Assembly: GCA_963281255.1 (NCBI GenBank)
Contig: OY725505.1
Location: 2,542,001-2,606,000 of the forward strand
Source of the DNA: Aphrocallistes beatrix
Taxonomy: Eukaryota > Porifera > Hexactinellida > Sceptrulophora > Aphrocallistidae
Reading direction: 5' to 3'
Length of the DNA stretch: 64,000 nt
Below, in pieces: positions 1,649 to 64,000 of this stretch. The position numbers and the translations under genes are program-made. The stretch's first letter is position 1. Each line of letters starts with the position of its first letter. The notes under the pieces are model-generated. The model searched no databases. It saw only the letters and a list, made by a program, of their open reading frames with translations, and was not told the DNA's origin.

Positions 1649-1720
1649 AAACAAATCCTGGCATTTTAATATATAAGATATATACATATATCTTATATAT
1701 TAAAATGCCAGGATTTGTTT
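1649..1720. repeat. Perfect 35-bp-arm palindrome of fused repeat tails
   Basis: Bases 1649-1683 and 1686-1720 are exact reverse complements around a two-base centre. Each arm contains TTTTAATATATAAGATATA, the same tail that follows hairpin-headed repeats near 56930 and 59565. The right arm runs into a (TTTG)n microsatellite at about 1712-1733. The structure looks like two repeat tails joined head-on. Confidence 0.8.
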
Positions 1721-2459
1721 GTTTGTTTGTTTGTCCGAATTGATTGAAGAATTGGCAAGTCGCAGAGATACGAAAATTGGCATGTAGGTGTCAAATGATG
1801 AATCTAGGATTAAGTTCGAAAATCTAAGCGAAATTTTCACACTTCTGCAAAAAATGGAAAACAAATTTTCACACCTTTTCTATACAAAATAAATGACTCA
1901 CTATCACAATAGAAACCATTGTACGACAATATTGTAGGCTGTAATTGTAATTAATACTTCAAACAATAACTTATATGAATGTCTCAATTATATATTATAG
2001 TGTATGGCAGTTAAAAAGGTTATTTGTATATTTTCACACCTTTATATACATATTTTCACACGATTTGACGAATTTTGAAAATTATGCTAGAAACTAGCTT
2101 TCAACGGTTGACATGGGGTTTTCAGGGGTGTAGATTTCGAATATCATATTTTCAGATCGATATGATAAATTATTTGTTTACTTTGTTTACAATAGATACA
2201 TAAAGTAAACAAATTACAAAAATGGGTTAGAAACTAGCTTTCAACGGTTGACATGGGGTTTTCAGGGGTGTAGATTTCGAATATCATATTTTCGGATCCA
2301 TATGAAAAATTATTCGTTGACCTTTGTTTACAATATATATATAAAGGAAAAAAATTCCAGAAATAGTTTAGATTGAGTAACTCCAGGCGCCCACAGGGCA
2401 ACTCTGCGGACACGCAGTGTCCGCAAGCCGCGCAGCGCAAGCAAGCGAAGCGCGCTTGT
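1708..2459 (-). repeat. Hairpin-headed repeat, 140-bp-unit subtype (two units)
   Basis: Read on the minus strand, it starts with a GC-rich head (2458 down to about 2383) containing the hairpin GCGGACACTGCGTGTCCGC. Next come two copies of a roughly 140-bp unit (boundaries near 2230 and 2360, with the shared word 'caggggtgtagatttcgaat'). The tail ends in GAATTGATTGAAGAATTGGC, followed by (TTTG/CAAA)n. The same order is seen at 56384-56965 and 57453-58560. The 2234-2506 open frame is the repeat itself and not a gene. Confidence 0.7.
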
Positions 2460-2462
2460 ATA

Positions 2463-5400
2463 TTTGAAAGAGAATGCATGGTCGATGCTAAAATACTCCA
2501 GCACATGCGCTAAAATATTTTAAATACGTATATGATTTTTAATGTTGTCTGTTGTTGTTGATACTTCCTTTCAAAGTATATCACTTTTTTAGATATACAA
2601 CTATTTTAAATTTTAACTGCATTGACAGTCCAATTAAAATAATTATTTTTAAAAATCTACAAAACTGGTAATAAATGCCTTAAAAATGAAAGATTATTCT
2701 GATTTATCTCCGTCTCGATTAGATCTTTTGAAGTTAATTAAGGTTGTGTGATTGTAAACAAATTAAATTCGAAAAAAACCCCCATTACGTTTCGAAACGT
2801 CATTTACTTATAACGAAAAGAGTTTATTAATAATATCGAAAATTGAGTAAATATAGTCATTTTACAAGGAAACCTTGAATCTACAAATATAACATTAATT
2901 ATTCAATAAATTATACGGATGGTCAGTTTTAAATTTTTCCAAAAAAACTATTTCAAATTTATCATATTTCCAATGTTTAGGTTCGAAATAGGAAAAACCA
3001 TCAATACAACATCAAGACATATTTTCCAAGCCTAACTCGGTTTAGGGGCACGGTGCCTTGCATATCATTCATCTAAAAATGTTAACATTCCTTCTTTTTA
3101 AAATGTTGCTGTGGATTGCACAAGAGCACGAGTTCTATTGATGCAATGAATTAATTAACCTTAGCAACGTGTTATGCAACAGGAATGCTATCATCAATGA
3201 TACATTAATTAGCTGTCTACTGGTCGATTGCACAAGCGATATCATGTTTCTATAAACCATTGTGACACTCTTAAATCACTTTTCTTGCTTTAATGTCTAG
3301 CTTCTAACAAAATTTATGCCGACCTTCAAACCTAATTACTGATAAGTTTAATCACTGTTACTTAATACTATTGGCTGTGTGAATTGATTTTGTACAACAG
3401 CCAACTTTCAGGGATCTTTTTGGATGTAAGTAAACTATTGTATTATTGACAGAAAAAAGTTATACTTTGTTTATCCTGTCTATTAGTTGGAGAAATTTAC
3501 GAAGATACACACAGTATTATTTCCTGGGATTTATAACTAAAATAAACTCTAAAGGAGGACTGAAAAGTTATTAGAATATTTAATCGGGAAGAGTATTAAT
3601 ATTAATATATTAATATGGATAGGAATATTCCAGGATGTCTATTTCAAGCATACGATGCCGACCTTCCTGGGAGTTTTGTTGAACTAATTTTATTAAAAAT
3701 GTTCACAATGGTTTAAATTGTAAATGAACAACCTAATTTGGCAATTTATCAATTCATGAACGGTTGGTAGGTAAGAGAATCATACGAAATACTAATATAG
3801 GGTCTTTTTTAGATATTTAAATGAACAAAATCGTGTCCAAGGATATGAGCAAATGTCCAGGGGGAAATTAGTTAGGTGTCCAGGGAATTGCTGTGATAAG
3901 TTGGCAGGTATGCATTTGTATGCACGTAATTCAAATCTGATATACAGTACCCGGACAAAAGTATTCAACCACCATATAAACCTCCATACAAATAGTATTA
4001 AAGTGGCTCTATTCATAAAGGAATATGTACATAAACTGTGAGGAATATTCTATTTTTTAATCAAATTCGTAAACAACACTCTCTAATACTCATAATTGAT
4101 AGTCTCAACTTAACTACTAACTCCCAAGTTAATAAATATCAATATTTGATACTTGATGCTACTTGTACCAAGTTACAGCCATTATAGATGATGGCGATTA
4201 TTGACATAAAGTGGTAGAGGTTGATAATTTTCTACATAAGAATAAATAATTAAGTTGAGATACTTAATTATGAGTAATTAGAATGTGTAGATGACGAATT
4301 TAAAATAAAAAATGAAAAAAAAATAGTTTCTGACAATATTTCATTTTGGGACACCTTTACTATTTATGACAACAAAGCCCTACATTACATTACATACTTA
4401 GTAGCTTTTATGATATTTTAAACTAAGATGAGTTAATTGAAAAAGCCACATAAAAGTGATTTTGTAATTACCTTGGGAAGAAACAAAATTAGCGGGGTAG
4501 GACTACCTACATACTCTAAAGATTTTTTTTATTTTTATATATTCGATAATACAATTTCTGAAAGAGTTATATAGTAAAGAGAATACCTTCTGGAAGATTT
4601 ATGATTTGTGATTTTCCTTTTTCTGACTCTACTATAGTAGGATAGCTTCTAAATGATCGTGATGAAGCCGACTTCATTCCTTCTGCAAAAACTATTATAA
4701 CAGAGCTTCAAATTTTCAGGAAGGGTGTAATGAAACATGTAAATGTGCACCTTGCGTACGAATTTCAATCCGTCACAATGGTGATCTAGGGTGAGAAAAT
4801 TCACACATATCCATAGCTCCTCAAAAACTATCAGAAATATTAATCGAAAGCTTCAATTTCAGTTCATTAGATTTTCCGTGAGATTTCAAGGTTAGTTGCA
4901 TAAAAAACTTTTTCTCTATCGTGAGTATTTTTGATAGGCTGAAACGAATATTCGAATATTCGTTTAGATGACGTAAGCATTTGTTCAACCTAGTACATCG
5001 CTTAACCAAACCAATCCTAGTTTTCCAGCAATGAGAAGTAATCCTAAAATCTATTTTTAAGAATATATAAAGTTTAAATTATCCCCAAAGTAAAATCCAT
5101 CTTCACAATGAGTGCAAAAAAATCTTTTTTTCGACTGAAAATCTCAACAATGGCACAATTATTTCAATATTTCCCATTTAACGCAAACGAATATTCGTTC
5201 TGAAATGAAAGGACATTCGTTAGGATCATTTCGAACGAATATCCCAAAATTCGGTATATTCGTTTCATCCCTAATTTATGAGATATTGCCAATTTAATTT
5301 TTAAAATATAATCCTACAAATTATACTAGATTTGAAAATGGAATTCTTTCATGATTCGATCAGTGCGAAATATCTTTATGACTCTTTGCAATAACCAGTT

Positions 5401-6689: not shown

Positions 6690-6994
6690 CAAGCGCGCTT
6701 CGCTTGCTAGCGCTGTGCGGCTGGCGGACACTTTGTGTCCGCCGGAGGCGCCCTTTGGGCGCCTGGGGTCACATTGATTAATAATAAGGGGGATAACATC
6801 TCTAAATACGTCTGTCTTACTGTCAAAATCGATATCACTCGAAAAATCTACAAATTTTTAAATTTTTAAATTTTTTTGATGCGTAATGATGACGTCATAA
6901 CAGGGTGATGAGTCATTTTTGGATGATAGTTGTATCATATGTGAAGAATATTAATATACATATTCTATTAAAATTTCAGTCTTCAAAAAATGGT
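6690..6994 (+). repeat. Hairpin-headed repeat, GACGTCAT subtype
   Basis: The head begins CAAGCGCGCTTCGCTTGC and holds two perfect hairpins, GGCGGACACTTTGTGTCCGCC and GGCGCCCTTTGGGCGCC. The body has 'aagggggataacatctct' and 'gatgcgtaatgatgacgtca', as in the copies at 54103 and 28452 (minus). The 3' part is cut short where the large inverted repeat begins at about 6995. The open frame at 6592-6777 is a shadow across the head. Confidence 0.75.
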
Positions 6995-7535: not shown

Positions 7536-8411
7536 TTAAAAAAAGATTTGGAGTCCGTAGTTAGGATTCTCAGATACTACCACTAACTTTAGATCATTAG
7601 TGAAAGCGACTCCCTGCGTGTTATAAAACATTCCGACTTCACTACCTATTCCGCCTATCGTATGGATGAGTGCCCCTTCGTTTGAGAATATTTTGATTTG
7701 GTTTGTAATATCGTTGAGAATCAAATTGTTATTATCGTCTATGCAGAAAAAGGTAGGCCATATAACCTGCATATCATCTCCACATGTGATCAGAGAACGA
7801 ATCTTGTCTCCACTGTAGGAGAATATGTGTATGCAAGGGCTGCCATTTTCCACCACACTGAGAATGTGCACGTTAACTCGGGTCAGTTTAATGTCTTTCG
7901 GTCGTTTGATGGAATCGTGTGAGATTGATCGCTGATATATTAGGTTCTTATCCAGAATTTGAATACGATCGTTTTGTTGATCAGCGACATAGACATTTCC
8001 GTTCGTTGATGCAGCAAGTCCTAGCGGGTCATTGAACTGTCCGGTACCTGATCCTTTTCCTCCTACCTTTGAAACAAAACGAATGTCTGGAACTTTGAAA
8101 TGATGAATATAGTGGCCCACTATGTCCGTTATGTAAATATTGTCTTGATGGATAGCTATGCCATATGGAAGCATAGCTTCTTCAAATTTGAATGTGTTTA
8201 GGAATACCCCTGTGTCAGAGAAGATTGATATGCGTGGGCCCATTCCTTCAACGATGTAAATTCGGTTAGTGTTTGTATCAATAGCGACAGCATTAGGCCA
8301 CCTGATTTCTCCAGGATTCCTTCCATCCTTTGCTACAGCTATTACATATCTAATTTCCCGATAGCACTTCATATCTTTGTCTTTATTAGGGAATTGGGCT
8401 GCCATTCTCAT
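7536..8411 (-). CDS. NHL-repeat beta-propeller protein, inverted-repeat left copy
   Basis: A 291-residue intact single-exon frame. It contains NHL-type repeats, seen as periodic blocks such as 'PNAVAIDTNTNRIYIVE', 'PYGIAIHQDNIYITD', 'PLGLAASTNGNVYVADQQ' and 'TQGVAFTNDLKLVVVS'. NHL repeats form a six-bladed propeller that usually binds proteins or RNA. No RING, B-box, signal peptide or membrane segment is visible, so this looks like a stand-alone intracellular propeller. The Met at 8411 is the first in frame; its start is shared exactly with the right-arm copy. Compared with that copy it has Leu for Ile and Asn for Asp in repeat 4, and one extra C-terminal Phe. Biological role is unknown. Confidence 0.82.
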   Translation of the reverse strand: MRMAAQFPNKDKDMKCYREIRYVIAVAKDGRNPGEIRWPNAVAIDTNTNRIYIVEGMGPRISIFSDTGVFLNTFKFEEAMLPYGIAIHQDNIYITDIVGHYIHHFKVPDIRFVSKVGGKGSGTGQFNDPLGLAASTNGNVYVADQQNDRIQILDKNLIYQRSISHDSIKRPKDIKLTRVNVHILSVVENGSPCIHIFSYSGDKIRSLITCGDDMQVIWPTFFCIDDNNNLILNDITNQIKIFSNEGALIHTIGGIGSEVGMFYNTQGVAFTNDLKLVVVSENPNYGLQIFF

Positions 8412-8534
8412 ATGAATCGACTCTACCGACCTATTATTATTAATTTGTAGAGTCTAGAGTACCAAAGTGTATCATTGACTCACGTAGACTCCGATCATTA
8501 TATATTATGGTACATTACTATATAAGGCATAGCC

Positions 8535-9599
8535 ATAGCCTACTCTAATATAATGCCTCACAGTAAAATAACCAAGGATGCGGTAATAGCCGAATGGATT
8601 AATACACGATTAGCCTAAAATCGTAAATCATGTAGGATAGGCATTAAGAATGTATTACCAGCATATATAAACATGGCATCAAATAACATATATCCGTTGT
8701 CAAAATTTCGATTCGTCATCATATCATTGCGCAACAGGTCATTTTAAGCACGATTTTGGCAATTTTCTAAGCTGTTTAACCCTATTTCTAAATGCTATTA
8801 AGGTGTGATTTTTGTGTAGAACCAAGATTAGTACGAGTTGATTTGAAAAATTTAGAATTTTTCAATGGAATGTTGTTACATTCCTACGTTGCTATGGTAA
8901 AGCATTTTGGTCAGTTTGGGCCATATCCTGCAAACTGTATGAACTAGGTCTTCAAATTTGATTTTATTTGATAGGCAATTGGCTACTTCCTATTAGGTAA
9001 TAATACAATTTAAACTTCTAAATTCACAGACTATAGAGTTATGCGACAATTTAGTGTTTTGGCCACATTCTTAAAATCAACCCATAACTCAAAACTCGTT
9101 GAATTTAGAAGTTCAAGTTGTATTATCACCTAATAGGAAGTAGGCCATTGCCTATCAAACACGATCGAATTTGAAGATCTAGCTACTACAGTTTGCACGA
9201 AATGGCCCAAACTGACCAACATGCTTTACCATAGCAACGCAGGAATGTAAGAACATTCCATTGAAAATTCTAAATTTTTCAAATCAACTCGTACTAATCT
9301 TGGTTCTACACAAAAATCACACCTTAATACCATTTAGAAATAGGGTTAAAACAACTTAGAAAATCGCTAAAATTGTCCTTAGAATGACCTGTTGCGCAAT
9401 GATATGATCACTAATCGAAATTTTTCCAACGGATATATGTACTTTGATATCATGTTTATATATGCTGGTAATACATTCTTAATGGCTATTCTGCATGGTT
9501 AACGATTTCAGGCTAATCGTGTATTAATCCATTCGGCTATTACGTCATCCCTAGTCCATGATTTTCAGTCTACTGTGAGGCATTATTAGAGTAGGCTAT
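8535..9599. mobile_element. 1065-bp foldback (palindromic) element with 9-bp target duplication
   Basis: The element starts ATAGCCTACTCTAATA and ends with its inverse. The two halves pair over almost their full length around about 9067, for example 'gccgaatggattaatacacg' near 8590 with its complement near 9520. It is flanked by GGCATAGCC at 8526-8534 and 9600-9608. The opposite arm of the large inverted repeat has a single unoccupied copy of this target at 10727-10735. No coding capacity is seen. A 9-bp duplication fits MULE-type or Merlin-type transposition. Confidence 0.88.
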
Positions 9600-9787
9600 G
9601 GCATAGCCTACTCCATATACCAACAGTAGGTATCAACCTCAAAATTTTTGGCTATCTACTATTATCTCACGATTTGACACATGCCATCATATTTGTATGG
9701 TAATAATAAATTCCTAAGCTCTATTCTGTCTACTTAATGATATTAGGCAGTTCATGTCCATCTTATACCGCATTCCTAGGGGACGCC

Positions 9788-9935
9788 TGCAAATTACCAA
9801 CAATATGGTTGTCAAATTACCGACAGATTTATGTTGTCAAATTACCAGCATATGTCTTAATTTGAAGACATGTGTTGGTAATTTGATAACATGATCTTGT
9901 TAGTAATTTAGTAATTTATCTGTTGGTAATTTGCA
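9788..9935. repeat. Short MITE with CAAATTACC motifs (left-arm copy)
   Basis: The element begins TGCAAATTACCAACA and ends with its inverse. Inside, the word CAAATTACCNACA and its complement recur. The same element lies in the right arm at about 10408-10553, so it was present before the inverted duplication. No clear target duplication can be assigned. Confidence 0.6.
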
Positions 9936-10045
9936 GCGCTCCCATTCCTAGTCCAAAATCCGCAAGTATTGAGCATTATATGTAGTAGGCCATGTTCAAT
10001 TACTATCTAGAAGCAGTTATATATGCACTTTAATATAATTGCTAG

Positions 10046-10288
10046 TTCTCGCGTAGAATCAACTTAATGCACTACACATCATAGGCATAGTAGATCTAAA
10101 ATGATTATACAAGAGTACATATATACTCTACGTATACCAGGACCAGAATGGCTAACTTCTATAGCACGCGGGTCAGAGGGGCCAAACATCCAATATTTTA
10201 TTCAAATATACTACAACGTACATAGAATATATTTCGACTGGTTATAAAATAGGCTAATTATAATATATATTTCCATTTGTTCCATTCT
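10046..10288 (+). promoter_or_regulatory. Orphan NHL-family promoter segment in the palindrome spacer
   Basis: About 10195-10288 repeats the sequence just upstream of the NHL gene at 12511, including the TATA-like 'GGTTATAAAATAGG' and 'tttgttccattctc'. Here it leads into the right arm of the inverted repeat instead of an ADIRVEF-type gene. It also carries the 'accagaatggctaacttcta' word found upstream of the 25055 and 29388 copies. It is best read as a promoter fragment captured during the rearrangement. Whether it drives transcription is unknown. Confidence 0.6.
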
Positions 10289-10407
10289 CTAGCAATTATA
10301 TTAAGGTGCATATTATAACTGCTTCTAGATAGTAATTGAACATGGCTTACTACATATAATGCTCAATACTTGCGGATTTTGGACTAGGAATGGGAGTGCT
10401 GCAAATT

Positions 10408-10553
10408 ACCAACAGATAAATTACTAAATTACTAACAAGATCATGTTATCAAATTACCAACACATGTCTTCAAATTAAGACATATGCTGGTAATTTGACA
10501 ACATAAATCTGTCGGTAATTTGACAACCATATTGTTGGTAATTTGCAGGCGTC
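10408..10553. repeat. Short MITE with CAAATTACC motifs (right-arm copy)
   Basis: Mirror image of the element at 9788-9935, with the same TGCAAATTACCAACA ends. Its presence in both arms dates it before the inverted duplication, unlike the foldback element found only in the left arm. Confidence 0.6.
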
Positions 10554-10849
10554 CCCTAGGAATGCGGTATAAGATGGACATGAACTGCCTAATATCATTA
10601 AGTAGACAGAATAGAGCTTAGGAATTTATAATTACCATACAAATATGATGGCATGTGTCAAATCGTGAGATAATAGTAGATAGCCAAAAATTTTGAGGTT
10701 GATACCTGCTGTTGGTATATGGAGTAGGCTATGCCTTATATAGTAATGTACCATAATATATAATGATCGGAGTCTACGTGAGTCAATGATACACTTTGGT
10801 ACTCTAGACTCTACAAATTAATAATAATAGGTCGGTAGAGTCGATTCAT

Positions 10850-11722
10850 ATGAGAATGGCAGCCCAATTCCCTAATAAAGACAAAGATATGAAGTGCTAT
10901 CGGGAAATTAGATATGTAATAGCTGTAGCAAAGGATGGAAGGAATCCTGGAGAAATCAGGTGGCCTAATGCTGTCGCTATTGATACAAACACTAACCGAA
11001 TTTACATCGTTGAAGGAATGGGCCCACGCATATCAATCTTCTCTGACACAGGGGTATTCCTAAACACATTCAAATTTGAAGAAGCTATGCTTCCATATGG
11101 CATAGCTATCCATCAAGACAATATTTACATAACGGACATAGTGGGCCACTATATTCATCATTTCAAAGTTCCAGACATTCGTTTTGTTTCAAAGGTAGGA
11201 GGAAAAGGATCAGGTACCGGACAGTTCAATGATCCGCTAGGAATTGCTGCATCAACGAACGGAGATGTCTATGTCGCTGATCAACAAAACGATCGTATTC
11301 AAATTCTGGATAAGAACCTAATATATCAGCGATCAATCTCACACGATTCTATCAAACGACCGAAAGACATTAAACTGACCCGAGTTAACGTGCACATTCT
11401 CAGTGTGGTGGAAAATGGCAGCCCTTGCATACACATATTATCCTACAGTGGAGACAAGATTCGTTCTCTGATCACATGTGGAGATGATATGCAGGTTATG
11501 TGGCCTACCTTCTTCTGCATAGACGATAATAACAATTTGATTCTCAACGATATTACAAACCAAATCAAAATATTCTCAAACGAAGGGGCACTCATCCATA
11601 CGATAGGCGGAATAGGTAGTGAAGTCGGAATGTTTTATAACACACAGGGAGTCGCTTTCACTAATGATCTAAAGTTAGTGGTAGTATCCGAGAATCCTAA
11701 CTACGGACTCCAAATTTTTTAA
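10850..11722 (+). CDS. NHL-repeat beta-propeller protein, inverted-repeat right copy
   Basis: A 290-residue intact single-exon frame, nearly identical to the minus-strand gene at 7536-8411. The start MRMAAQFPNKDKD is the same in both. NHL blocks include 'PYGIAIHQDNIYITD' and 'PLGIAASTNGDVYVADQQ'. Visible differences are Ile, Asp, Leu ('HILSYSG') and Met ('QVMWPT'), and loss of the last Phe. The paucity of differences means recent duplication or ongoing gene conversion between the arms. The two genes point away from each other. No localisation signals are seen; the likely role is as a binding scaffold, with unknown partner. Confidence 0.82.
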   Translation: MRMAAQFPNKDKDMKCYREIRYVIAVAKDGRNPGEIRWPNAVAIDTNTNRIYIVEGMGPRISIFSDTGVFLNTFKFEEAMLPYGIAIHQDNIYITDIVGHYIHHFKVPDIRFVSKVGGKGSGTGQFNDPLGIAASTNGDVYVADQQNDRIQILDKNLIYQRSISHDSIKRPKDIKLTRVNVHILSVVENGSPCIHILSYSGDKIRSLITCGDDMQVMWPTFFCIDDNNNLILNDITNQIKIFSNEGALIHTIGGIGSEVGMFYNTQGVAFTNDLKLVVVSENPNYGLQIF

Positions 11723-14677: not shown

Positions 14678-14725
14678 AGTATAAATAGAAATCAAATAAC
14701 CTCAATTCACTGTCTTGTGTTTTAG

Positions 14726-27673: not shown

Positions 27674-27778
27674 TTCCTTTTTCCTATTTTTGATGGATAG
27701 ATTTCCTCCACAATTTCTAATAATTCGTTGATTCTTATTTATTTTTGCAATTCTCATCACTTCTTTTTATTTACTTAA

Positions 27779-27957
27779 AATGATGACTCATCACTCTGTT
27801 ATGACGTCATCACACACATCAAAATTTTAAAAATTGACAAATTTGGTGATTTTTCGTGCGATATTGATTATAACAGTAGGACAGGCGTATTTAGGGATGG
27901 TATCTCCCTTATAATTAATCAATGTGACCCCAGGCGCCCACAAGAAGCGCGCTTATA
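27779..27957 (-). repeat. Hairpin-headed repeat, GACGTCAT subtype, head deleted
   Basis: On the minus strand the body words 'attataagggagatacc' and 'tgacgtcataacagagtg' are clear. The head is reduced to 'gaagcgcgctta' and 'aggcgccc'-type ends, lacking the central GGACAC hairpin. It abuts the tail of the next copy (27958-28452), giving two head-to-tail copies. Confidence 0.6.
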
Positions 27958-28452
27958 TATATATACGTATATCTATCTAACGAATTGATTGAAGAAACTG
28001 GCAGGGACAGAAAGCTGATTTTTGGCATGCGGGAGTCTTTAAGCTATGACTCCACTAAGTTCTGAGTTCAGACGAAAATGTCGACTCATCATGGAATTAT
28101 GACGTCATTGTCACCTTTCTTATAATTAGAAATTTCAGTTTTTCGATCTTAACTCAGTCATTTTAGGCGATAGAAGGCTGAAATTTTAATAGAATATGTA
28201 TATTCATATACCTCTCATAAGATGTGACTATGATCAAAAAATGATGACTCATCACTTTGTTTTGACGTCATCATTACGCATCAAAAATGATTTTTCAAGT
28301 GATTTCAATTATAACAGTAAGGCAGACGTATTTAGAGATGTTATCTCCCTTATAATTAATCAATGTGAACCCAGGCGCCAGAAGGGTGCCTCCGGCGAAC
28401 ACAAAGTGCCCGCCTGCCGCACGGCGGAAGCCAGCGAAGCGCGCTTGCCTGG
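27958..28452 (-). repeat. Hairpin-headed repeat, GACGTCAT subtype, near full length
   Basis: Read on the minus strand, the head is at 28452 down to about 28370, followed by 'gatgcgtaatgatgacgtca', a second 'atgacgtcataattccatga' block, and the tail CAGTTTCTTCAATCAATTCG with an (AT)n run at 27957-27975. It is co-linear with 54103-54622. The tail matches the 3' end of the 140-bp-unit subtype, so both subtypes share head and tail but differ in the body. The frame at 28196-28546 is a shadow. Confidence 0.75.
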
Positions 28453-30296: not shown

Positions 30297-31560
30297 TTTA
30301 TTCTTTTCCTTCTAACATTTCCTCAGTCATTTCTTAACATATATTTTTGTTCTTTTGCATCTTTTCTATTTCCTTTCTTTTTATTTGTTTTTATTTTTGT
30401 TTTTCAATACGTTTACGACTGTTTTATCTTTTCAACTATTTGCTTTATTTCATTCAATCATATAACAATGCTTCGTATCACCATTAATTAATCCTATATT
30501 TGTGTCGTATTAGCATGTTCCTGTAAATTGATTTTTGTAGTCCATTTGAAACTTTTGGCTAAATTAACCAATATTTGGCGCCTGTGGGCAGCGGTTGAGT
30601 TATTTGATTTCTTCAGCCCCATGCAGGGTGAATCTGCGGACATTCTCTAACCACACTAAGCAAGTTTGTGAAGTACGCTTGTACATGTTTAAGTGATAAG
30701 CCATACTAAGCTAGCCCTGCAGCGTTCGGTGTGGTCTGTAATCCAGCTAGGCTCTTGTAGTGCAATCTTAATACGATTATTCCATCCCCATCAACGAACT
30801 TTCCACGAACCATTGTGCACAGACTACTAGTCATTACCAGGAATGAGAAGACCAAATGCTAGAATGATTCTTAAAATACTAAATTGTGCCAAAGTCTTAT
30901 AAAAGTATATTCCAAGAGTATTATTCGATTGACAAAACCAAAATTTGACTCTCCTCCTCATCCATAGTAATATTCAGCGATCCTTAAATAACGGACAACG
31001 AATAAACAATAGAATGATCGTAGCTAATAAGAAAATATTTGCAATCGATCAGTAGCATAATACGAAACGACTAATTTTATATGTAGTAAGCAATTAAATG
31101 GGTGATTGATTAAACCACAGCTTGCTCCATTCAACTGCCCGGCACAACGGTCCCCCTCCAGCTCCAAACCTAGGTGGCAGCCCCTGAAACAACACACAAA
31201 CGTCCAGGGGGAGCAGTGCTCCTCTAGTGATCTTTTAAGGCGGAGCGAGCTTCCTCCACTAATTTTCAAACAGGTAGTGCGTTTCTTTGACAAATTGGTA
31301 TAATATTTTTTTAAATTTTGATAACTCATTACCGATTAAGTCATTTTGGGCGGGAAAACCTTAGTAATGTGGGGTCTTGGCTATAAATAGAAGTGACCCC
31401 AGGCAATTTTTAACTATAATAAATTTGAATTTTTGGAATATTTAGGATAATTTTTTTGTTATGATAGTTTTTTAAGGTTTCTAATACAAGTGCGCTTCGC
31501 TTTCTTGCGCTCTCTAAATTCGCACTAATCTCTGGAGCTTCTTAATTAAATAAGCATTTT
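30297..31560. other. 3' flank of NHL block and unrecognised GC-rich stretch
   Basis: About 30297-31000 matches the 3' flanks at 13426-13990 and 25959-26600, including T-rich 'tcctttctttttatttg' words and a degenerate minus-strand hairpin head near 30620-30690. About 31110-31265 is a GC-rich stretch (frames on both strands are shadows) with no recognised family. A degenerate plus-strand head lies near 31485-31515. Confidence 0.4.
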
Positions 31561-31776: not shown

Positions 31777-31852
31777 CAAGCGCGCTTCGCGCTTGCTTGC
31801 GCTGCGCGGCTGGCGGACACTTCGTGTCCGCCGGAGGCTCCCTTCGGTCGCC
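31777..31852 (+). repeat. Hairpin-headed repeat, head only, running into the gap
   Basis: The head reads CAAGCGCGCTTCGCGCTTGC, then GGCGGACACTTCGTGTCCGCC, then 'ggaggctcccttcggtcgcc', after which the sequence is N. It is almost identical to the head at 54103. The hairpins probably contributed to the assembly break. Confidence 0.75.
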
Positions 31853-53883: not shown

Positions 53884-54102
53884 TTCTAGGTTTACCAGTA
53901 CTGACAATGCTCTTACCAATATACATGTAATGTTGTGATTTTCCTTTTTTGTTAATTATATGCTTTCATTCCCTCATTGTGTGTAAAATGATTTGAGACG
54001 GATCCTCTGATACTGGTGCTAACATGTGATCTGATCAGAGATGTAGGAAATTGCGTAACATTTCAATTTCAAAATTGCCCAGGCATTGCCGTTTATTTAT
54101 TA

Positions 54103-54622
54103 CAAGCGCGCTTCGCGCTTGCTTGCGCTGCGCGGCTGGCGGACACTTTGTGTCCGCCGGAGGCTCCCTTCGGTCGCCTGGAGTCACATTGGTTAATTAT
54201 AAGGGAGATAACATCTCTAAATATGTCTGTCCTACTGTGCTAATCGATATCACTCGAAAAATCACCAAATTTGTGAATTTAAAAATTTTTGATGCGTAAT
54301 GATGACGTCATAACAAAGTGATGAGTCATCATTTTTTGATGATAGTTGCATCATATGTGAGACATGTTAGTATACAGATTCTATTAAAATTTCACCTTTC
54401 TATCTCCTATAATGGCTGAGTTATGCCCGAATAACTGTGTTGCTTAACTTTTTAAAATGTGACAATGACGTCATAATTCCATGATGAGTCGACATTTTCG
54501 TCTGAGCTCAGAACTTACTGGAGCCATAGCCAAAAGACTCCCACATGCCAAAAATCAGCTTTCTGCGCCTGGCAGTTTCTTCAATCAATTCGTAACAGAT
54601 ATATATATATATATATATACAA
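54103..54622 (+). repeat. Hairpin-headed repeat, GACGTCAT subtype, best full-length copy
   Basis: Head 54103-54185 with GGCGGACACTTTGTGTCCGCC. The body has 'aagggagataacatctct', 'gatgcgtaatgatgacgtca' and 'atgacgtcataattccatga'. The tail has CAGTTTCTTCAATCAATTCG followed by an (AT)n run to 54622. It is co-linear with the minus copy 28452-27958. The frames at 54016-54299 are shadows across the head. Confidence 0.8.
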
Positions 54623-55361
54623 ATATTAATTAATCGAGTTTTAATAGTAAGGATTAAAAGCTTTGCCAAAGGGGTCTATTGGTATTTTTTGCACAAATAC
54701 AGGAATTTGAACCTGCTTTTCTCTCTGATTCCAGATTTGAAATCTACACATTCGAATTAGTTAAGTTGAACATATCTAATAAATTACTCAACCCAATGAT
54801 ACATTTTATCAGCTTGAGCCACCATGGGTAATTCATTGCCATCATGTATTGTGGTTAGAAGTAGCTAAAATGGTATCTGTGACATAAGGCGGCACTGATT
54901 AACAATTTCAAATAATTAGGAATTAATGATTAATTAGAAAAATTCAACTGTGACTAATTAGAATGTGTAGTGTTATTTGAATATGGAATCCGATTAGCTG
55001 TTTTCCATACCGTTTAGAAGTAATCCTCTTCATAAATACACCCATTTTAGTACAATTTGTATGTGAAATAATGAAGTATTCAAATACTTTTGTCCCCTTG
55101 GTGTATGTTCCAGCCTGTATATTGAAATGCCAGTCATATCGACTGTAAAACTCAATCAATAATAATATATTCCCTGCACCTGAAATATATTGTGATACTG
55201 ATTGCAATAATGACAATAATAACAATATATGCGGTAGCTAAATATTGATGCGGGTTGGAAAGCTGAAACATGTTTCCAGTTGCCTACTTATGTATAAATT
55301 ATACTATATGAAAAAAATTCATATCTGTTAGCTATATAATATCGACTAAATACCATCAGAC
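54623..55361 (+). other. MITE remnant and promoter of the MSKR gene at 55362
   Basis: About 54735-55112 is a member of the MITE family whose right end reads AATACTTTTGTCCCCTTGGTG; the left end is not clear. The last 50 bp repeat the family promoter block (CTGTTAGCTATATAATATCG, 'actaaataccatcagac'). The minus frame at 54944-55225 is a shadow. Confidence 0.5.
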
Positions 55362-56282
55362 ATGAGCAAACGGGAAACTACTCAAGTGGAGATACGAGGT
55401 CATCTCAATAAGGGAATCAAACCAGCAGAAAATTCAAGAAAAGAATGTTATAAAATAGATGGTACACATTACAGACAATTCTCAATGAAGTATAACGGTT
55501 GGGACCTAGGGTACGCTCTCGCATGTAATAATAACTTTCTTTTGGTAGTTAGTGACGTTAATGATCGTATTATGTTACTTCAGTTTTACACCTTAGAAGG
55601 TTTCTTTGTGACTTCTTTTAAAAGTGTAGTGAAGACTTGTAATGATCGCAATATTTATGCTTCATCCTCGCATCTAAGATTTACAAATGATTTCATCCTA
55701 GCGTGCTTTAGCGAATTGTGTTGGATGCGAATAAACGATTACAATATCAAACTTAAAATTGCCTCGAGTGGTCCTATCCCATATCTTCTGGATAGCGATA
55801 AATATGGAAATCTCTATGTAATTGAAAATTTCAAATATCCCTTAAATCCCAAAATTGGAATATACAGCTTTGATTTAGAGTTCTTGAAACTGTTCAATAA
55901 TAATTTACACAATTGCGGTCGTCCTATTTCCTTCTGCATCAAAGAAGATACAATGTTTGTTGTAACAAGGCTTAAGGATAACAGTCTGACCCTTTTCAAG
56001 TTAGACTTAACAAATGGTAAAATAATGTATGCGAAAAAACTCAACAGTATTAGACTACAAGACTCAATCCATCTCTGTGTGGATGATATGTATAATATAT
56101 TCATTGGTGCTAAGAATTCAACACATATTTGCATATATTATGCGTCAGGAATAATTCGCTATTATTCCATTGAGAAGCTTCGGGAATTTAGATGTCTAGG
56201 AATCGCCTATGTGGCCAATTGTAACAGCATCTCTGTATTTCTGTATCCCTCTCGTATGGAGATGTACAATCTTGCTTTGTAA
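55362..56282 (+). CDS. MSKR-family propeller-like protein, intact copy 2
   Basis: A 306-residue single-exon gene starting MSKRETTQVEIRGHLNKGIK, longer than copies 1 and 3 mainly in the basic leader and loops. Propeller-like blocks: 'YALACNNNFLLVVSD', 'YTLEGFFVTSFKSVV', 'LRFTNDFILACFSEL', 'YLLDSDKYGNLYVIENF', 'ISFCIKEDTMFVVTR', 'IHLCVDDMYNIFIGA' and 'GIAYVANCNSISVFL'. It ends '...MEMYNLAL'. It is closest to the broken copy at 59819 in its leader ('ETTQV'). A hairpin-headed repeat starts about 100 bp after its stop. Function is unknown. Confidence 0.75.
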   Translation: MSKRETTQVEIRGHLNKGIKPAENSRKECYKIDGTHYRQFSMKYNGWDLGYALACNNNFLLVVSDVNDRIMLLQFYTLEGFFVTSFKSVVKTCNDRNIYASSSHLRFTNDFILACFSELCWMRINDYNIKLKIASSGPIPYLLDSDKYGNLYVIENFKYPLNPKIGIYSFDLEFLKLFNNNLHNCGRPISFCIKEDTMFVVTRLKDNSLTLFKLDLTNGKIMYAKKLNSIRLQDSIHLCVDDMYNIFIGAKNSTHICIYYASGIIRYYSIEKLREFRCLGIAYVANCNSISVFLYPSRMEMYNLAL

Positions 56283-56383: not shown

Positions 56384-56965
56384 CAAGCACGCTTCGCTTG
56401 CTTGCGCTGCGCGGCTTGCGGACACTGCGTGTCCGTAGAGTCACCCTGCGGGCGCCTGGAGTTACTCAATCTAACATATTTTGGGATTTTTTTCCATTAT
56501 ATAAATATTTTAAACACCATATCAACCGTTGAAAGCTAGTTTCTAGCATAATTTTCAAAATTCGTCAAATCGTGTGAAAATATGTATATAAAGGTGTGAA
56601 AATATAGAAATAACCTTTTTAACTGCTATAAACTATAATATATAATTGAGACATTCATAAAACTTATTGCTTTGAAGTATTAATTACAATTACAGCCTAC
56701 AATATTGTCGTATAATGATTTCTATTGTGAGAGTGAAGCCGTACATAGTATTGTATAGAAAAGGTGTGAAAAATTGTTTTCCATTTTTTTGCAGAGGTGT
56801 GAAAATTTCGCTTAGATCTTAGAACTTAATCGTAGATTCATCATTTGACACCTACATGCCAATTTTCGTATCTCTACGACTTGCCAATTCTTCAATCAAT
56901 TCGAACAAACAAACAAACAAACAAATCCTAGCATTTTAATATATAAGATTTATTTCTTTTATATA
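56384..56965 (+). repeat. Hairpin-headed repeat, 140-bp-unit subtype (one partial unit)
   Basis: Head CAAGCACGCTTCGCTTGC, hairpin TGCGGACACTGCGTGTCCG, then part of one 140-bp unit ('accgttgaaagctagtttct'), a shared 'gaaaggtgtgaaaatttcgc'-like region, the tail GCCAATTCTTCAATCAATTC, (CAAA)n and 'tcctagcattttaatatata'. It lies just 3' of the gene ending at 56282. The frame at 56285-56539 is a shadow. Confidence 0.75.
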
Positions 56966-57452: not shown

Positions 57453-58560
57453 CAAGCGCACTTCGCTTGCTTGCGCTGTGCGGCTTGCGGACACTGCGTG
57501 TTCGCAGAGTCGCCCTATGGGCGCCTGGAGTTACTTAATCTAACCTATTTTGATCTTTTGCTTTATATAAATATAGTAAACAAAAGTTAACGAATAATTT
57601 CTCATATGGATTCGAAAATATAATATTCTAAATCTAGACTACTAAAAACCTCATGTCAACAGTTGGAAGCTGGTCTCTAGCCTACTTTTGTAATCTGTTT
57701 ACTTGATGTATCTATTGCAAACAAAAGTAAACAAATTAATTATCAAATTTACTCGAAAATATGATATTCGAAATCTTCACCCTTGAAAACCCCATTTTAA
57801 CCGTTTACAGCAGGTTTCTAGCATATTTTTGAGATTTGTATACTTTATGTATCTATTGTAAACAAAGGTAAACAAATTAATTATAAATTCACTCAAAAAT
57901 ATGATATTCGAAATCTACACCTTGAAAACCCCCATGTTAACCGTTTAAAACAAGTTTCCAGCACATTTTTGAGATTTGTTTACTTTATGTATCTATTGTA
58001 AACAAAAGTAAACAAATTAATCATCAAATTTACTCAAAAATATGATATTCGAAATCTACACCCCTGAAAACCCCATATCAACCGTTGGAAGCTAGTCTCT
58101 AGCCTATTTTTGTAATTTGTTTACTTTATGTATCTATTGTAAACAAAATTAGACAAATAATTTATCATATCGATCTGAAAATATGATATTCGAAATCTAC
58201 ACCCCTGAAAACCCCATGTCACCCGTTGGAAGCTAGTGTCTAGCATTATTTTCAAAATTCATCAAATGGGGTGAAAATATGTATATAAATGTGTGAAAAT
58301 ATGTAGATAATCTTTTTTATTGCCATACACTATAATGCATTTAAGATATCAAACATAAGTTGTGGCTTTGAAGTATTAATAACAATGACAATCTATTGTA
58401 GTGTCGTACAATGGTCTATTGTGATAGTGTAGTCATTTATTTTGTATAGAAAAGGTGTGAAAAAATTGTTTTCCATTTTTTTGCAGAGGTGTGAAAATTT
58501 CGCTTGGATCTTGGAACTTAATCGTAGTCAAATCATTTGACACCTAACATATACAATTTT
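57453..58560 (+). repeat. Hairpin-headed repeat with a five-unit 140-bp tandem array
   Basis: The head at 57453-57535 is followed by five tandem units marked by 'atgatattcgaaatct' at about 57618 (variant), 57761, 57901, 58041 and 58181, a period of 140 bp. Then comes the conserved 3' region with 'gcagaggtgtgaaaatttcg'. The copy at 1708-2459 has two units and the one at 56384 has part of one. Unit number is therefore variable between copies. Confidence 0.8.
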
Positions 58561-59376
58561 ATATAATTATTATAAAATAATTATATAATTATCATATAAT
58601 TATTTTATAATAATTATATAATAATTAAATAATTATTATAAAATAATTATATAATAATTATATAATAATTATATAATAATTATATAATTATTTTATAATA
58701 ATTATATAATAATTATATAATAATTATATAATTATTATATAATTATTATATAATTATTATAAAATAATTATATGATAATTATATAATTATTTTATAATAA
58801 TTATATAATTATTATATAATTATTATATAATTATTATATAATTATTATAAAATAATTATATAATTATTATATAATTATTATATAATTATTATAAAATAAT
58901 TATATAATTATTATATAATAATTATATAATTATTATATAATTATTATATAATTATTATATAATTATTTTATAATAATTATTTAATTATTATATAATAATT
59001 GTATATGTTAGGTGTCAAATGATTTGACTACGATTAAGTTCCAAGATCCAAGCGAAATTTTCACACCTCTGCAAAAAAATGGAAAACAATTTTTTCACAC
59101 CTTTTCTATACAAAATAAATGACTACACTATCACAATAGACCATTGTACGACACTACAATAGATTGTCATTGTTATTAATACTTCAAAGCCACAACTTAT
59201 GTTTGATATCTTAAATGCATTATAGTGTATGGCAATAAAAAAGATTATCTACATATTTTCACACATTTATATACACATTTTCACCCCATTTGATGAATTT
59301 TGAAAATAATGCTAGACACTAGCTTCCAACGGGTGACATGGGGTTTTCAGGGGTGTAGATTTCGAATATCATATTT
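58180..59376. repeat. 1.2-kb inverted repeat around an AT-only palindromic core
   Basis: Arms 58180-58556 and about 59007-59376 are reverse complements ('gacacctaacatatacaatt' on the left, its inverse on the right). The core of about 450 bp (58557-59006) consists almost only of A and T in variants of TATAATTATTATA, itself highly self-complementary. The whole would fold into one long hairpin. It contains no genes. Confidence 0.85.
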
Positions 59377-59818
59377 TTGAGTAATGTATTTGCATTATAA
59401 AATAATCGAATTTGATTGGTCAGCACATTTTGTCACCTATCTCGGCGAGGTGTGAACATTTCTCTTAGATCTTCGAACTTCATTTGACACCTACATGCCA
59501 ATTTTCGTATCTCTACGACTTGCCAATTCTTCAATTAATTCGGACAAACAAAAACAAAAATCCTAGCATTTTAATATATAAGATATATTTCTATTCAAGC
59601 GTGCTTAGCACACTTGCGTAGCAACCTCACCGAGAAGTTATTTATTTGTCAAGTAATCCTAGAGGCTAGTAGGCATAATACTACACTCTTTCCTCAGATG
59701 TTAATAACTTAAGAAGTTACTGATACTGTTACTTTTTATGAAGTTTATTTAAATTTTTTGAAAAAATCTTATTTCAGTTAGCTATATAATATACAAGTAT
59801 ATATAAATACCATCATAC
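59377..59818 (+). other. Tail copy, degenerate head and promoter of broken MSKR copy
   Basis: About 59500-59580 repeats the hairpin-family tail ('acttgccaattcttcaatta', then 'tcctagcattttaatatata'). About 59597-59630 is a degenerate head (CAAGCGTGCTTAGCACACTT). The last 50 bp carry the MSKR promoter block TCAGTTAGCTATATAATATA with a second TATATATAAA just downstream. Confidence 0.45.
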
Positions 59819-60532: not shown

Positions 60533-61482
60533 ACGAGATCATCTCACAAAGAGACTCAAACCAGCAGAAAAGTCCAGAAAAGAATGCTATAAGATAGATG
60601 GTACAACTTACTACTACATACAATTCTCATACAATTCTCAGAAGTCTGATGGTTGGTGCCCAGGGAATGCTCTCGCATGTAATAATAACTTACTTTTGGT
60701 ACATTATAGTACCGTTAATTACCATATTCTACTACTTCGATTTTACACCTCAGAAGGTTTCTTTGTGACTTCATTTAAAAGTGTAGTGGATACTGACGTC
60801 ACTGTTTATTGCTCAGATCTCAGATTTACAAATGATTTCATTCTAGCGTCCTTTAACAATTTTTTTTCGGTGCGAATGAGCGATCATAATATCAAACTTG
60901 ATCCTATCAGATCTCTTCTGGATGGTGATAAATATGGAAATTTCTATGCAATTGAACAATATCATTCTGAATATAAAATCGGAATATACAGCTTTGATTT
61001 TGAGTTCTTGAAACTGTTCAAAATTATTTACGCGATTTCGGTTGTCCTCTTTCCCTCTGCATCAAAGAAGATACAATGTTTGTTGTATCAGAGATTAATT
61101 ATACTAGTATGGCCCTTTTCGAGGTAAACTTATCAAATGGTAAAATAATGGCTAAGAAAAAACTCAACACTGGTAGACTACGTGACTCAATCCATCTCTG
61201 TGTTGATATGTATAATATATTCATTAGTGGTGACAAATTAACACATATCTGTATCTATTATGCGTCAGGAATAATTCGATATTATTCCATTGAGAAGTTG
61301 GGGAGATATAGTACAAGTAGATGTCAAGGTGTCGCATATGTGGCCCACTGTAACAGCATCTCTGTATTGCTGTATCCCTATTCTACTTGTATTAGGATAT
61401 ATAATCTTGCTTTGTGATTGTGAATCCAAACATTGCTCAGTTGAATCTATATTATTTAAATCCAATTGTTGTATATAGCATA

Positions 61483-61700
61483 CAAGCGCGCTTCGTTTGC
61501 TTGCGCTGCGCGGCTGGTAGACATTTTATATCCGCCAGAGGCGTCCTTTGGGCGCCTAGGCTCACGATTAATTATAAGGTAGATAACACGTCTGTCTTAC
61601 TATTATAATCGATACCACTCGAAGAATCACCCAATTTTTCAATTTTTTGATGCGTAATGATGACGCCATAACAGAGTGATAAGTCATCATTTTTTGGTGA
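61483..61700 (+). repeat. Hairpin-headed repeat, GACGTCAT subtype, 3' truncated
   Basis: Head CAAGCGCGCTTCGTTTGC, with the main hairpin eroded (GGTAGACATTTTATATCCGCC) but partly still paired. The body 'gatgcgtaatgatgacgcca' is present; the tail is absent after about 61700. It starts about 65 bp after the stop of the broken MSKR gene, as at the 56282 gene. Confidence 0.65.
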
Positions 61701-61947
61701 TTACTAAGTCATCCAGATTGTTTACACCGAAATTCGAAAGTATGTCCGCTCTGACAGATTTATCAGGTTTTTGTGGAAGTAAGGGGAGAAGGGCGCTACA
61801 ACTCACAGTGGGATGTTGGTTGTTTATGGTGATAATTGCCCTTCCAGGGTAATGGTTTATAAATGGTTTTGTACAAATAAAACTGTCCAGGGAGACTTTT
61901 AGGTGTTTCAGGACAAAATTAATTATTTCAATAAGATTATTGTCCAA
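61687..61947 (-). CDS. Unidentified 86-residue frame, protein-like
   Basis: The frame starts MDNNLIEIINFVLKHLKVSL and has 'KPFINHYPGRAIITINNQ', 'LLPLLPQKPDKSVRADILSN' and 'FGVNNLDDLV'. The composition is balanced and helix-rich at the start, unlike the AT-rich shadows nearby, so it may be a genuine fragment of a larger protein, possibly transposon-encoded. I do not recognise the family. The plus-strand hairpin repeat overlaps its 3' end. Start is uncertain. Confidence 0.35.
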   Translation of the reverse strand: MDNNLIEIINFVLKHLKVSLDSFICTKPFINHYPGRAIITINNQHPTVSCSALLPLLPQKPDKSVRADILSNFGVNNLDDLVITKK

Positions 61948-62764: not shown

Positions 62765-63655
62765 ATGAGCAAACGGGCAACTACTCAAGGAGATAATATC
62801 GCTAAGAGACGTAAGCCAGCACAAAAGTCAAGAAAAGAATGTTATAAAATAAACCGTACAGATTACAGACAATTCTCAATAAACTCTTGCGGTTATCAAA
62901 GGAAAGCTCTTGCATATAATAATAACTTACTTTTGATATATTGTGACGTTAATGACCATGTTCAACTATTTCAAATTTACACCTTAGAGGGTTTCTTTGT
63001 GACTTCATATGAGAATGTAGTGAAGATTGGCCGCACTAAGATCTCAGATCTCAGATTTACAAATGATTTCATTCTAGCGTCCTTTCAAAACCTTTGTTTA
63101 ATCCGAATTAGCGATTATAATATCAAACAAAGATTGGCCTCGAGTTATTCTTTCAGATTTCCACTGGACAGTGATAAATACGGGAATTTCTATGCAATTG
63201 AACCCTTCAATTCTGAATATAAAATCGGAATATACAACTTTGATTTTGAGTTCTTGCAACTCTTCAATAATGATTTACACGATTACGGTTGTCCTCTTTC
63301 CCTCTGCATCAAAGAAGATACAATGTTTGTTGTCACAAGGTTTAAAGATAACAGTCTGACCCTTTTCAAGGTTGATTTAATAAATGGTAAAATAATGAAT
63401 GTGAAAAAACTCAACCATCGTTTACTACCAAAGCCAATATATCTCTTCGTGGACGATATGTATAATGTATTCATTAGTTGTGTGTGTACTACACATATTT
63501 GTATCTATTATGCGTCAGGAAGAATTCGTTACTTTATAACTAACAAGCTGGAGCGTGATTATCAGGAAAGTGAAGGAATTGCATATGTGGCCAATTGTAA
63601 CAGCATATTTGTATTGAAATCTCCCCATTTTAAGATGTACAGTCTTGCTTTGTGA
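62765..63655 (+). CDS. MSKR-family propeller-like protein, intact copy 3
   Basis: A 296-residue single-exon gene starting MSKRATTQGDNIAKRRKPAQ, closest to the 48662 copy in the basic leader, with 'KALAYNNNLLLIYCDV', 'YTLEGFFVTSYENVV', 'LRFTNDFILASFQN', 'FPLDSDKYGNFYAIEPF', 'LSLCIKEDTMFVVTRF' and 'GIAYVANCNSIFVL'. The central 'NNDLHDYGCPLSLCI' and 'RFKDNSLTLFK' segments resemble the 55362 copy instead, so it may be a gene-conversion mosaic. It is intact. Function is unknown; a nuclear propeller-like scaffold is an inference. Confidence 0.75.
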   Translation: MSKRATTQGDNIAKRRKPAQKSRKECYKINRTDYRQFSINSCGYQRKALAYNNNLLLIYCDVNDHVQLFQIYTLEGFFVTSYENVVKIGRTKISDLRFTNDFILASFQNLCLIRISDYNIKQRLASSYSFRFPLDSDKYGNFYAIEPFNSEYKIGIYNFDFEFLQLFNNDLHDYGCPLSLCIKEDTMFVVTRFKDNSLTLFKVDLINGKIMNVKKLNHRLLPKPIYLFVDDMYNVFISCVCTTHICIYYASGRIRYFITNKLERDYQESEGIAYVANCNSIFVLKSPHFKMYSLAL

Positions 63656-63759
63656 TCTTGAACTTTGAAATTTTATGCATCATGTAATATACTAATGAAA
63701 CTTGATTGCTGTGTATATATTTATTTAGAATATATTCATATATTCATATATTTATATAT

Positions 63760-64000
63760 TTATATACTAGCGTGTTTGGCGCACTTGCGTAGCAAGGTTT
63801 GTAAAGACTGCTTATCCGCAGATTCACTCGGTCCCTTTTGATTCCCTACTAAGGATTGATGGATTGTCATTTATCTACTGCAAGCGCGCTTCGCTTGCTT
63901 GCGCTGCGCGGCTGGCGGACACTTTGTGTCCGCCAGAGGCGCTTCGGACGCCTAGGTTCACATAAATCAATTAAAAGGGAGATAACATCTCTATATACTA
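63760..64000 (+). repeat. Two hairpin-headed repeat heads, second runs off the window
   Basis: A degenerate head at about 63765-63835 (GTGTTTGGCGCACTTGCGTA) is followed by an intact one from 63881, with CAAGCGCGCTTCGCTTGC and GGCGGACACTTTGTGTCCGCC and the start of the GACGTCAT-subtype body ('aaaagggagataacatctct'). It lies 3' of the gene ending at 63655, repeating the arrangement at 56282 and 61417. Confidence 0.7.

What the first reader, a model, noticed from the sequence alone, without database searches (positions are those of the whole stretch)
1708..64000. Dispersed hairpin-headed repeat family with compensatory changes in its stem
At least nine copies (1708-2459, 6690, 27779, 27958, 31777, 54103, 56384, 57453, 61483, 63881) share a GC-rich head with consecutive hairpins in otherwise AT-rich DNA. 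The basal pair of the main stem is G-C in GGCGGACAC/GTGTCCGCC copies and T-A in TGCGGACAC/GTGTCCGCA copies, and the loop changes with it (TTT versus TGC). Such co-variation implies that the folded form, probably of an RNA, was selected. Two different bodies are joined to the same head and the same tail (TTCTTCAATCAATTCG plus a microsatellite). A retroposon with a structured or self-cleaving 5' end, or a Helitron-like end, are both possible.
Basis: partly seen in the sequence, partly recalled or inferred. Interest (0 to 1): 0.85.

Follow-up and report, generated by a model that had tools for sequence, protein, structure and literature searches.

The report
Hairpin ends of glass-sponge Helitron transposons
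The repeated hairpin "head" is the tail end of an abundant family of rolling-circle jumping genes (Helitrons) in a glass sponge; its hairpins are probably stop signals for jumping rather than a selected RNA, and some copies seem to record how such stop signals are lost and replaced.

Summary
The repeats are real: ten profile matches in the window (nine heads, one fragment) and 8,062 sites within two mismatches of a 21-base core in the 100.5-Mb genome. The interpretation changes. The "head" is the 3' terminus of two related Helitron families, read backwards. In the correct orientation elements run A|TC...CTTG|T. Four of four complete window elements have these flanks, and one copy inside a Rep gene has an A|T empty site without target duplication. 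Coding partners carry Helitron_like_N, PIF1 and OTU domains and end in the same hairpins. COX1 places the host next to the glass sponge Aphrocallistes beatrix. The G-C/T-A basal pair merely separates the two families; in 135 copies the stem shows no covariation beyond shuffles, and Rfam finds nothing convincing. RNA selection, a ribozyme and a retroposon are not supported. The new part: several coding Helitrons carry a decayed inner copy of this terminus in series with an intact outer one, as expected if a failed terminator is read through to a downstream one.

The parts
1691..2458 (+). B-type non-coding Helitron, complete: A|TCTTATATATTAAAA...CTTG|T
   Evidence: ends and flanks; 132 bp at 93.9% to the 5' end of coding Helitron L060
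2379..2458 (+).
   Evidence: profile match 2379-2461
1652..1678 (-). solitary B-type 5' tip, head to head with the element at 1691
   Evidence: fuzzy match to the B 5' end
6690..6984 (-). A-type copy, 5' part lost; 3' end at 6690
27779..27955 (+).
   Evidence: sequence; end match 27942-27955
27978..28447 (+). A-type copy, 5' tip lost, 3' terminus 28366-28447, CTTG followed by C
31484..31511 (-). fragment of a 3' terminus
   Evidence: profile match
31777..31852 (-). A-type 3' terminus running into a run of N
54103..54654 (-). complete A-type non-coding Helitron, 552 bp: A|TCCTTACTATTAAAACTC...(AT)n...hairpins...CTTG|T
   Evidence: collinear with the 5' part of coding Helitron L166 at 90.4% over 490 aligned columns
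56384..56949 (-). complete B-type non-coding Helitron, A and T flanks
57453..59583 (-). complete B-type element enlarged by a 141-bp tandem array, inverted arms and an 11-bp satellite; A and T flanks
   Evidence: ends; repeats
61483..61701 (-). A-type copy, decayed, 5' part lost
63881..64000 (-). A-type copy cut by the window end; CTTG followed by C

Best explanation
The dispersed hairpin-headed repeats are non-coding copies of two related Helitron families (A and B) in a glass sponge close to Aphrocallistes beatrix. The 'head' is the Helitron 3' terminus: a hairpin-rich stretch of about 80 nt (three or four helices in the forms folded) ending in CTTG. The 'tail' plus microsatellite lies just inside the 5' TC end. 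Coding partners in the same genome encode RepHel (HUH nuclease plus PIF1 helicase) with a C-terminal OTU match. Probable mechanism, by analogy with the experimentally studied Helitron Helraiser: RepHel nicks the 5' TC end, peels off one strand, the helicase stalls at the 3' hairpins, CTTG is cut and the ends join as a circle that inserts between A and T. Shown here: the termini, A|T insertion at one empty site, RepHel genes flanked by the same termini, and 3'-to-5' end joins in the genome. Inferred: that the hairpins act as the stop signal, and on the transferred strand.
For: Rep domain: 106 matching rows (genes and fragments) from 122 candidates. A 1,966-aa ORF has PIF1 (264 bits), Helitron_like_N (198 bits), Pif1_2B and OTU, an HAH motif at 760 and YLYKY at 895. 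Two B coding copies on different contigs (98.9% identical over 6.9 kb) lose similarity within 11 bp after ...GCGCACTTG|T (flanks). The A coding copy L166/L036/L167 begins A|TCCTTACTATTAAAACTC and ends ...GCGCGCTTG|T. An A copy inserted in a Rep gene has empty site GTAAA|TGTAATG in three relatives and GCAAA|TGTAATG in a fourth. Base before the 5' end: A in 48 of 50 distinct exact A-type ends, the other two being CTTG|TCC joins; A in 9 of 11 B-type ends (up to two substitutions). Base after the last CTTG: T in 113 of 117 rows, C in 4; 18 further rows lack CTTG. 184 places within one mismatch of the CTTG|TCCTTACTATTAAAAC join (98+86, control 0). PMC4778049 (abstract and passages) reports the hairpin as terminator, A|T insertion, precise head-to-tail circles and CTTG ends; PMC5876387 (passages) reports the plus strand as the active one.
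Against: CTTG is not the canonical CTRR; PMC4778049 mentions CTTG ends for maize and for hairpin-deleted Helraiser. In Helraiser the hairpin lies 11 nt before the end, whereas here one of two competing folds puts CTTG inside the last stem. Only one empty site was tested, and because both the element and the right flank begin with T its position is ambiguous by one base. In the window 2 of 10 3' ends are followed by C. The 3' regions fetched for two further A-type Rep copies (L172, L173) held no terminus. Terminator function was not tested experimentally.
Confidence: 0.96

Rival explanations
1. A retroposon (SINE-like) or PLE-like element with a structured or self-cleaving RNA 5' end, whose fold is kept by selection on RNA.
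For: Strong hairpins (DNA-parameter fold z from -3.4 to -5.7 for three forms in Helitron orientation, -2.3 and -3.7 for two on the other strand), a microsatellite near the far end, and a basal-pair difference that keeps pairing. The covariation score is higher than in slid structures (0.085 against 0.013-0.033), but the structure was drawn from these sequences, which by itself has that effect.
Against: No excess over shuffles; no Rfam match at gathering score and only a 13.6-bit match to an unrelated family in a relaxed scan of one element; sequence continues past the microsatellite to a fixed tip; A|T insertion without duplication at the site tested; RepHel genes carry the same termini.
Confidence: 0.02
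2. A Helentron/HINE (DINE-1-like, pearl-like) element rather than a canonical Helitron: these too carry microsatellites, tandem repeats and a 3' palindrome.
For: Microsatellite next to the 5' tip and 141-bp tandem repeats in one B copy.
Against: Helentrons/HINEs have subterminal inverted repeats, insert in T-rich/TT sites and their partners carry an endonuclease (PMC4067079, passages). Here insertion is A|T with TC and CTTG ends, and Pfam finds no endonuclease in the one coding protein scanned, 1,966 aa. Subterminal inverted repeats were not searched for.
Confidence: 0.02
3. The basal G-C to T-A change is a true selected compensatory change that keeps a DNA stem in the Helitron 3' end, invisible within families because copies decay freely after insertion.
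For: Both family forms pair fully at the base (71 of 74 A copies G-C, 47 of 53 B copies T-A). PMC4778049 (passages) reports that exchanging the stem keeps about 90% activity, while a change of the loop and its closing pair does not.
Against: It is one difference, accompanied by a neighbouring one-base indel. In hairpin 4 the common A form GGCGACC/GGGAGCC has two mismatches where GGCGCCC/GGGCGCC has two G-C pairs (sequences), so pairing is not always kept.
Confidence: 0.35

Closest known systems
Canonical Helitrons; best studied case Helraiser/Helibat1 (PMC4778049, PMC5876387)
   Same: 5' TC end, A|T insertion, 3' hairpin, RepHel with HUH and a two-tyrosine motif, precise head-to-tail end joins
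   Different: 3' CTTG instead of CTAG; several consecutive hairpins instead of one 19-bp palindrome 11 nt from the end; microsatellite just inside the 5' tip; decayed inner 3' ends kept in series
Animal RepHel proteins, e.g. a predicted protein of Mytilus galloprovincialis (P0125)
   Same: 50% identity over the whole 1,001-aa RepHel query region; Helitron_like_N, PIF1 and Pif1_2B domains
   Different: the sponge protein is longer (1,966 against 1,431 aa) and has a C-terminal OTU match that is not listed for P0125
Helentrons / HINEs / DINE-1 (PMC4067079, passages) and bivalve pearl/CvA elements (recalled; search listing only)
   Same: microsatellite and tandem repeats inside the element; Helentrons are also rolling-circle type
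   Different: insertion in T-rich sites, subterminal inverted repeats and endonuclease in Helentrons; A|T, TC/CTTG and no endonuclease found here

Membership tests
Helitron (canonical, Helitron1 type) | RepHel transposase (HUH Rep plus PIF1/SF1 helicase) in partner elements with the same termini | tested here: met
   for the protein; shared termini
Helitron (canonical, Helitron1 type) | 5' TC end preceded by host A | tested here: met
   A before 48 of 50 A-type and 9 of 11 B-type ends
Helitron (canonical, Helitron1 type) | 3' CT tetranucleotide (CTRR, or the documented variant CTTG) followed by host T | tested here: met
   CTTG|T in 113 of 117 rows with CTTG, 18 of 135 rows without it; strict CTRR is not met, CTTG ends are reported in PMC4778049
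Helitron (canonical, Helitron1 type) | insertion between A and T with no target duplication | tested here: met
   one empty site compared in four relatives, one-base placement ambiguity; four of four complete window elements flanked by A and T
Helitron (canonical, Helitron1 type) | hairpin near the 3' end | tested here: met
Helitron (canonical, Helitron1 type) | rolling-circle intermediates with precise end joins | tested here: inconclusive
   184 genomic CTTG|TCC joins fit circles or tandem copies but do not show circles
Helentron/HINE | endonuclease domain in the partner, insertion in TT | tested here: not met
   one coding protein scanned; insertion A|T
SINE or other retroposon | target duplications and no fixed sequence beyond the 3' simple repeat | tested here: not met
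Self-cleaving ribozyme (HDV-like, twister) | match to the family covariance model in Rfam | tested here: not met
   no gathering-score match in the window; relaxed scan of window 54090-54670 only
Structured RNA under selection | covariation in excess of shuffles | tested here: not met
   126 of 500 shuffles reach the observed number of pairs with both-side changes

The most novel reading that the evidence does not exclude
In this sponge the coding Helitron of family A is a read-through product of the short one. The 552-bp element and the coding element are collinear for their first 5' part, including a 3' terminus module (RTS1), which is intact in the short element and decayed in the coding copies seen. 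When RTS1 fails, transposition runs on through the RepHel gene to a second terminus (RTS2), and when RTS2 fails it runs on to a third. Terminator failure would then decide whether a copy moves short or moves with its own transposase gene, and the genome keeps the steps: RTS2 intact in one copy, broken and followed by another terminus at three other loci.
Probability: 0.3. Interest if true: 0.6.

Novelty: new member of a known kind. Interest (0 to 1): 0.36.

Why it matters
It settles what a very common repeat of this glass sponge is, and gives a natural series of Helitron 3' ends (intact, broken, broken plus replaced) in closely related copies. Helitron gene capture is proposed to depend on failure of the 3' hairpin (PMC4778049); sibling copies like these would let that model be tested by comparison and in cell assays. 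It is also a caution: a paired difference between two transposon families can look like RNA covariation.

Tried and rejected
RNA covariation: tested on 135 distinct copies and rejected. Rfam: no match at gathering score, one chance-level match in the relaxed scan of one element. tRNA-derived SINE: ARAGORN in bacterial mode found no tRNA gene in the window, a weak test. Bivalve pearl/CvA and Helentron: followed through the literature first because of the microsatellite and tandem repeats, then rejected on insertion site and protein domains. A second split Rep gene (L165) was tried as an empty-site test; its insert has inverted ends and is not this element. A trace of an older 5' end between RTS1 and the RepHel gene was sought in L166 by fuzzy patterns; none was found. 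The 3' regions of two more A-type Rep copies (L172, L173) were fetched and held no terminus, and L170 gave a 5' end only. Paper searches: the hairpin letters, 0 papers; 'glass sponge' with 'Helitron', 0 papers; Aphrocallistes with transposable elements and genome assembly, one paper, on mitochondrial DNA of another sponge, seen in the listing only. I found no report of this family in that library; other libraries were not searched. That C-GNA-G triloops are unusually stable in DNA is recalled; one search gave a search listing only. The nearest-neighbour fold gives equal energies for both strands of the main hairpin, so it does not support a strand preference.
Full report
Origin. The window is C19:2542001-2606000 of a genome of 100.5 Mb in 28 contigs. 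The mitochondrial COX1 on C28 (translated with the invertebrate code) is 95% identical over the whole query to Aphrocallistes beatrix; the next named hits are other glass sponges. The genome carries no name; 'close to A. beatrix' rests on this one gene.

The observation. Ten profile matches of the head lie in the window: nine heads and one fragment. Genome-wide there are 3,485 exact GCGGACACNNNGTGTCCGC stems against 0 for the reversed control, 8,062 sites within two mismatches of GCCGCGCAGCGCAAGCAAGCG (3,951 + 4,111, control 0) and 1,203 within two mismatches of a B-specific 19-mer (637 + 566, control 0). It is not one tandem-duplicated region.

Where the element ends. Loci fetched with one head as query showed that beyond the 'tail' and its microsatellite many copies continue to a fixed sequence, TCGAGTTTTAATAGTAAGGA, followed by T. 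Read on the other strand an A-type element is A|TCCTTACTATTAAAACTCGA...(AT)n...GTAACGAATTGATTGAAGAA...hairpins...GCGCGCTTG|T. B-type elements begin A|TCTTATATATTAAAA and have (TTTG)n. The base before the 5' end is A in 48 of 50 distinct exact A-type ends; the other two are direct joins to CTTG. Among 11 B-type ends (up to two substitutions) it is A in 9; one of the other two is a join to CTTG and the other sits beside a ...GCTTG-like end. The base after the last CTTG is T in 113 of 117 rows and C in 4; 18 of 135 rows had no CTTG. In the window 8 of 10 3' ends are followed by T and two by C; four of four complete elements have A before and T after.

Empty site. A copy at about C1:2812712-2813262 interrupts a Rep gene. 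Relatives without it read GTAAATGTAATG (L036, L042, L038) and GCAAATGTAATG (L041); the filled site reads GTAAA-[element]-TGTAATG. The insertion fits A|T with no duplication and no loss. Since element and right flank both begin with T, the position is ambiguous by one base.

Coding partners. The Rep domain search gave 106 matching rows, many of them fragments, from 122 candidates. The ORF of L060 is 1,966 aa with Helitron_like_N, PIF1, Pif1_2B and OTU, an HAH motif and YLYKY. Its RepHel part is 50% identical to a predicted Mytilus protein (P0125). Two B-type coding copies on C2 and C7 have the B 5' end, are 98-99% identical, and lose similarity within 11 bp after ...GCGCACTTG|T. The A-type coding copy has the A 5' end in L166 and ends ...GCGCGCTTG|T in L167; L036 in between holds its Rep domain, the ORF is 1,959 aa, and about 1.9 kb between L036 and L167 was not read. 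The A and B proteins are 61% identical over 1,169 aa.

Covariation. I aligned 135 distinct 3' ends: 51 from 60 loci that match the 21-mer exactly (the first 60 of the 100 places listed, all on C1), 40 that match the B-specific 19-mer exactly (40 of the 100 places listed, on C1 and C2), 36 bystander copies and 8 window copies. The 21-mer and the 19-mer lie outside the main stem. Copies found by a perfect head or stem (41 rows) were left out, as were 24 partial or N-containing matches and 5 duplicates. The main stem forms standard pairs in 94.1% of cells (shuffled mean 94.1), has three pairs with a both-side change (shuffled 1.8 +/- 1.2; 126 of 500 reach it), and a covariation score of 0.085, equal to the shuffled mean. 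In slid structures the paired percentage falls to 18.6-37.6 and the score to 0.013-0.033, while pairs with both-side changes range from 0 to 6; the first two differences are expected of any structure drawn from the sequences. In that count 57 rows are gapped at the basal pair, so I counted it separately on 127 rows (8 gapped rows dropped): G-C in 71 of 74 A-type, T-A in 47 of 53 B-type. At the other eight pairs there are six double changes, three of them complementary, against about 3.2 doubles of any kind expected from independent change. The contrast is one difference between two families.

Loop bias. In Helitron orientation 113 of 127 main loops have the form R-N-A (AAA 55, GAA 25, GCA 19, ACA 8, GTA 4, ATA 2). 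GNA loops closed by C-G are recalled to be unusually stable in DNA. If that matters, the strand that folds is the TC...CTTG strand, the one reported active in Helraiser (PMC5876387, passages). This is suggestive only; fold energies of the main hairpin are equal on both strands.

Termini in series. In the A-type coding copy L166 the first 5' part is collinear with the short window element (90.4%, positions 48-536 of 552), up to a decayed 3' terminus module that lacks the final CTTG. The same decayed module is found in L168 and L169 (profile positions 2-73 and 10-73 of 86), and L041 has a decayed main hairpin at the corresponding place. At the far end, the copy whose Rep lies at C2:4157222 (L171, assigned to it by distance) ends at an intact module...AAGCGAAGCGCGCTTG|T, while L167, 95% identical up to there, loses the last bases of that module and runs on for about 140 bp to another intact module. 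L172 and L173, fetched for two more copies, held no terminus. A query across the broken join matched whole or nearly whole at three loci among 40 scored of 1,346 candidates; the other 37 matched only the part after the break, which is therefore the body of a common non-coding subfamily. All three were read, with different flanks each starting with T (L167, L174, L175). In family B a decayed inner module followed by the outer one matched whole at 11 loci among 40 scored of 897; four were read, all CTTG|T with different following sequence, one joined directly to a B 5' end (L062, L063, L176, L177). The arrangement has therefore been copied, not only decayed in place.

Mechanism. In Helraiser the 3' hairpin acts as a terminator, and when it is lost the transposase can run past the end and use another one, carrying flanking DNA along (PMC4778049, abstract and passages). 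The serial modules here are what that process would leave. The alternative, recombination between copies at the shared hairpin sequence, is not excluded, and the match of the sequence after the break to a common non-coding subfamily fits both. That the short A element came first and acquired RepHel by read-through is one reading; no older 5' end was found between the decayed module and the gene, so the direction is open.

Verdict. A known kind of transposon, in a host group for which my searches found no Helitron paper. The striking covariation is not supported; the serial termini are the part worth following.

Noticed in passing
7541-8534 and 10727-11720, with nested arms 8571-10738: Large nested inverted repeats (994 nt, 99% complementary) carrying mirror copies of a single-exon NHL-repeat gene.
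   Followed up: no
12478-30296: Several similar single-exon NHL-type ORFs and fragments in one stretch (one of them scanned with Pfam).
   Followed up: no
48662-49546, 55362-56282, 62765-63655, partial near 60536-61273: Orphan gene family beginning MSKR.TTQ, three full ORFs and one partial relative; the member scanned had no Pfam match.
   Followed up: no
58178-59377: About 41 copies of an 11-bp AT-rich unit (TATATAATTAT) between nearly identical inverted arms, inside the B-type Helitron 57453-59583.
   Followed up: partly
20396-21109; 31774-32844; 47183-48064: An IS1595-like DDE transposase domain, a mariner-type transposase domain next to a run of N, and a reverse transcriptase domain in GC-richer DNA.
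   Followed up: no
L165 (C1:3737100-3738300): A Rep gene is interrupted by an insert with inverted ends, unlike the Helitrons.
   Followed up: no
hairpin 4 of A-type copies, e.g. 54161-54179: The common A form GGCGACC-GAA-GGGAGCC differs from GGCGCCC-AAA-GGGCGCC in its stem by two C/A differences that give adjacent G-A mismatches in place of two G-C pairs.
   Followed up: partly
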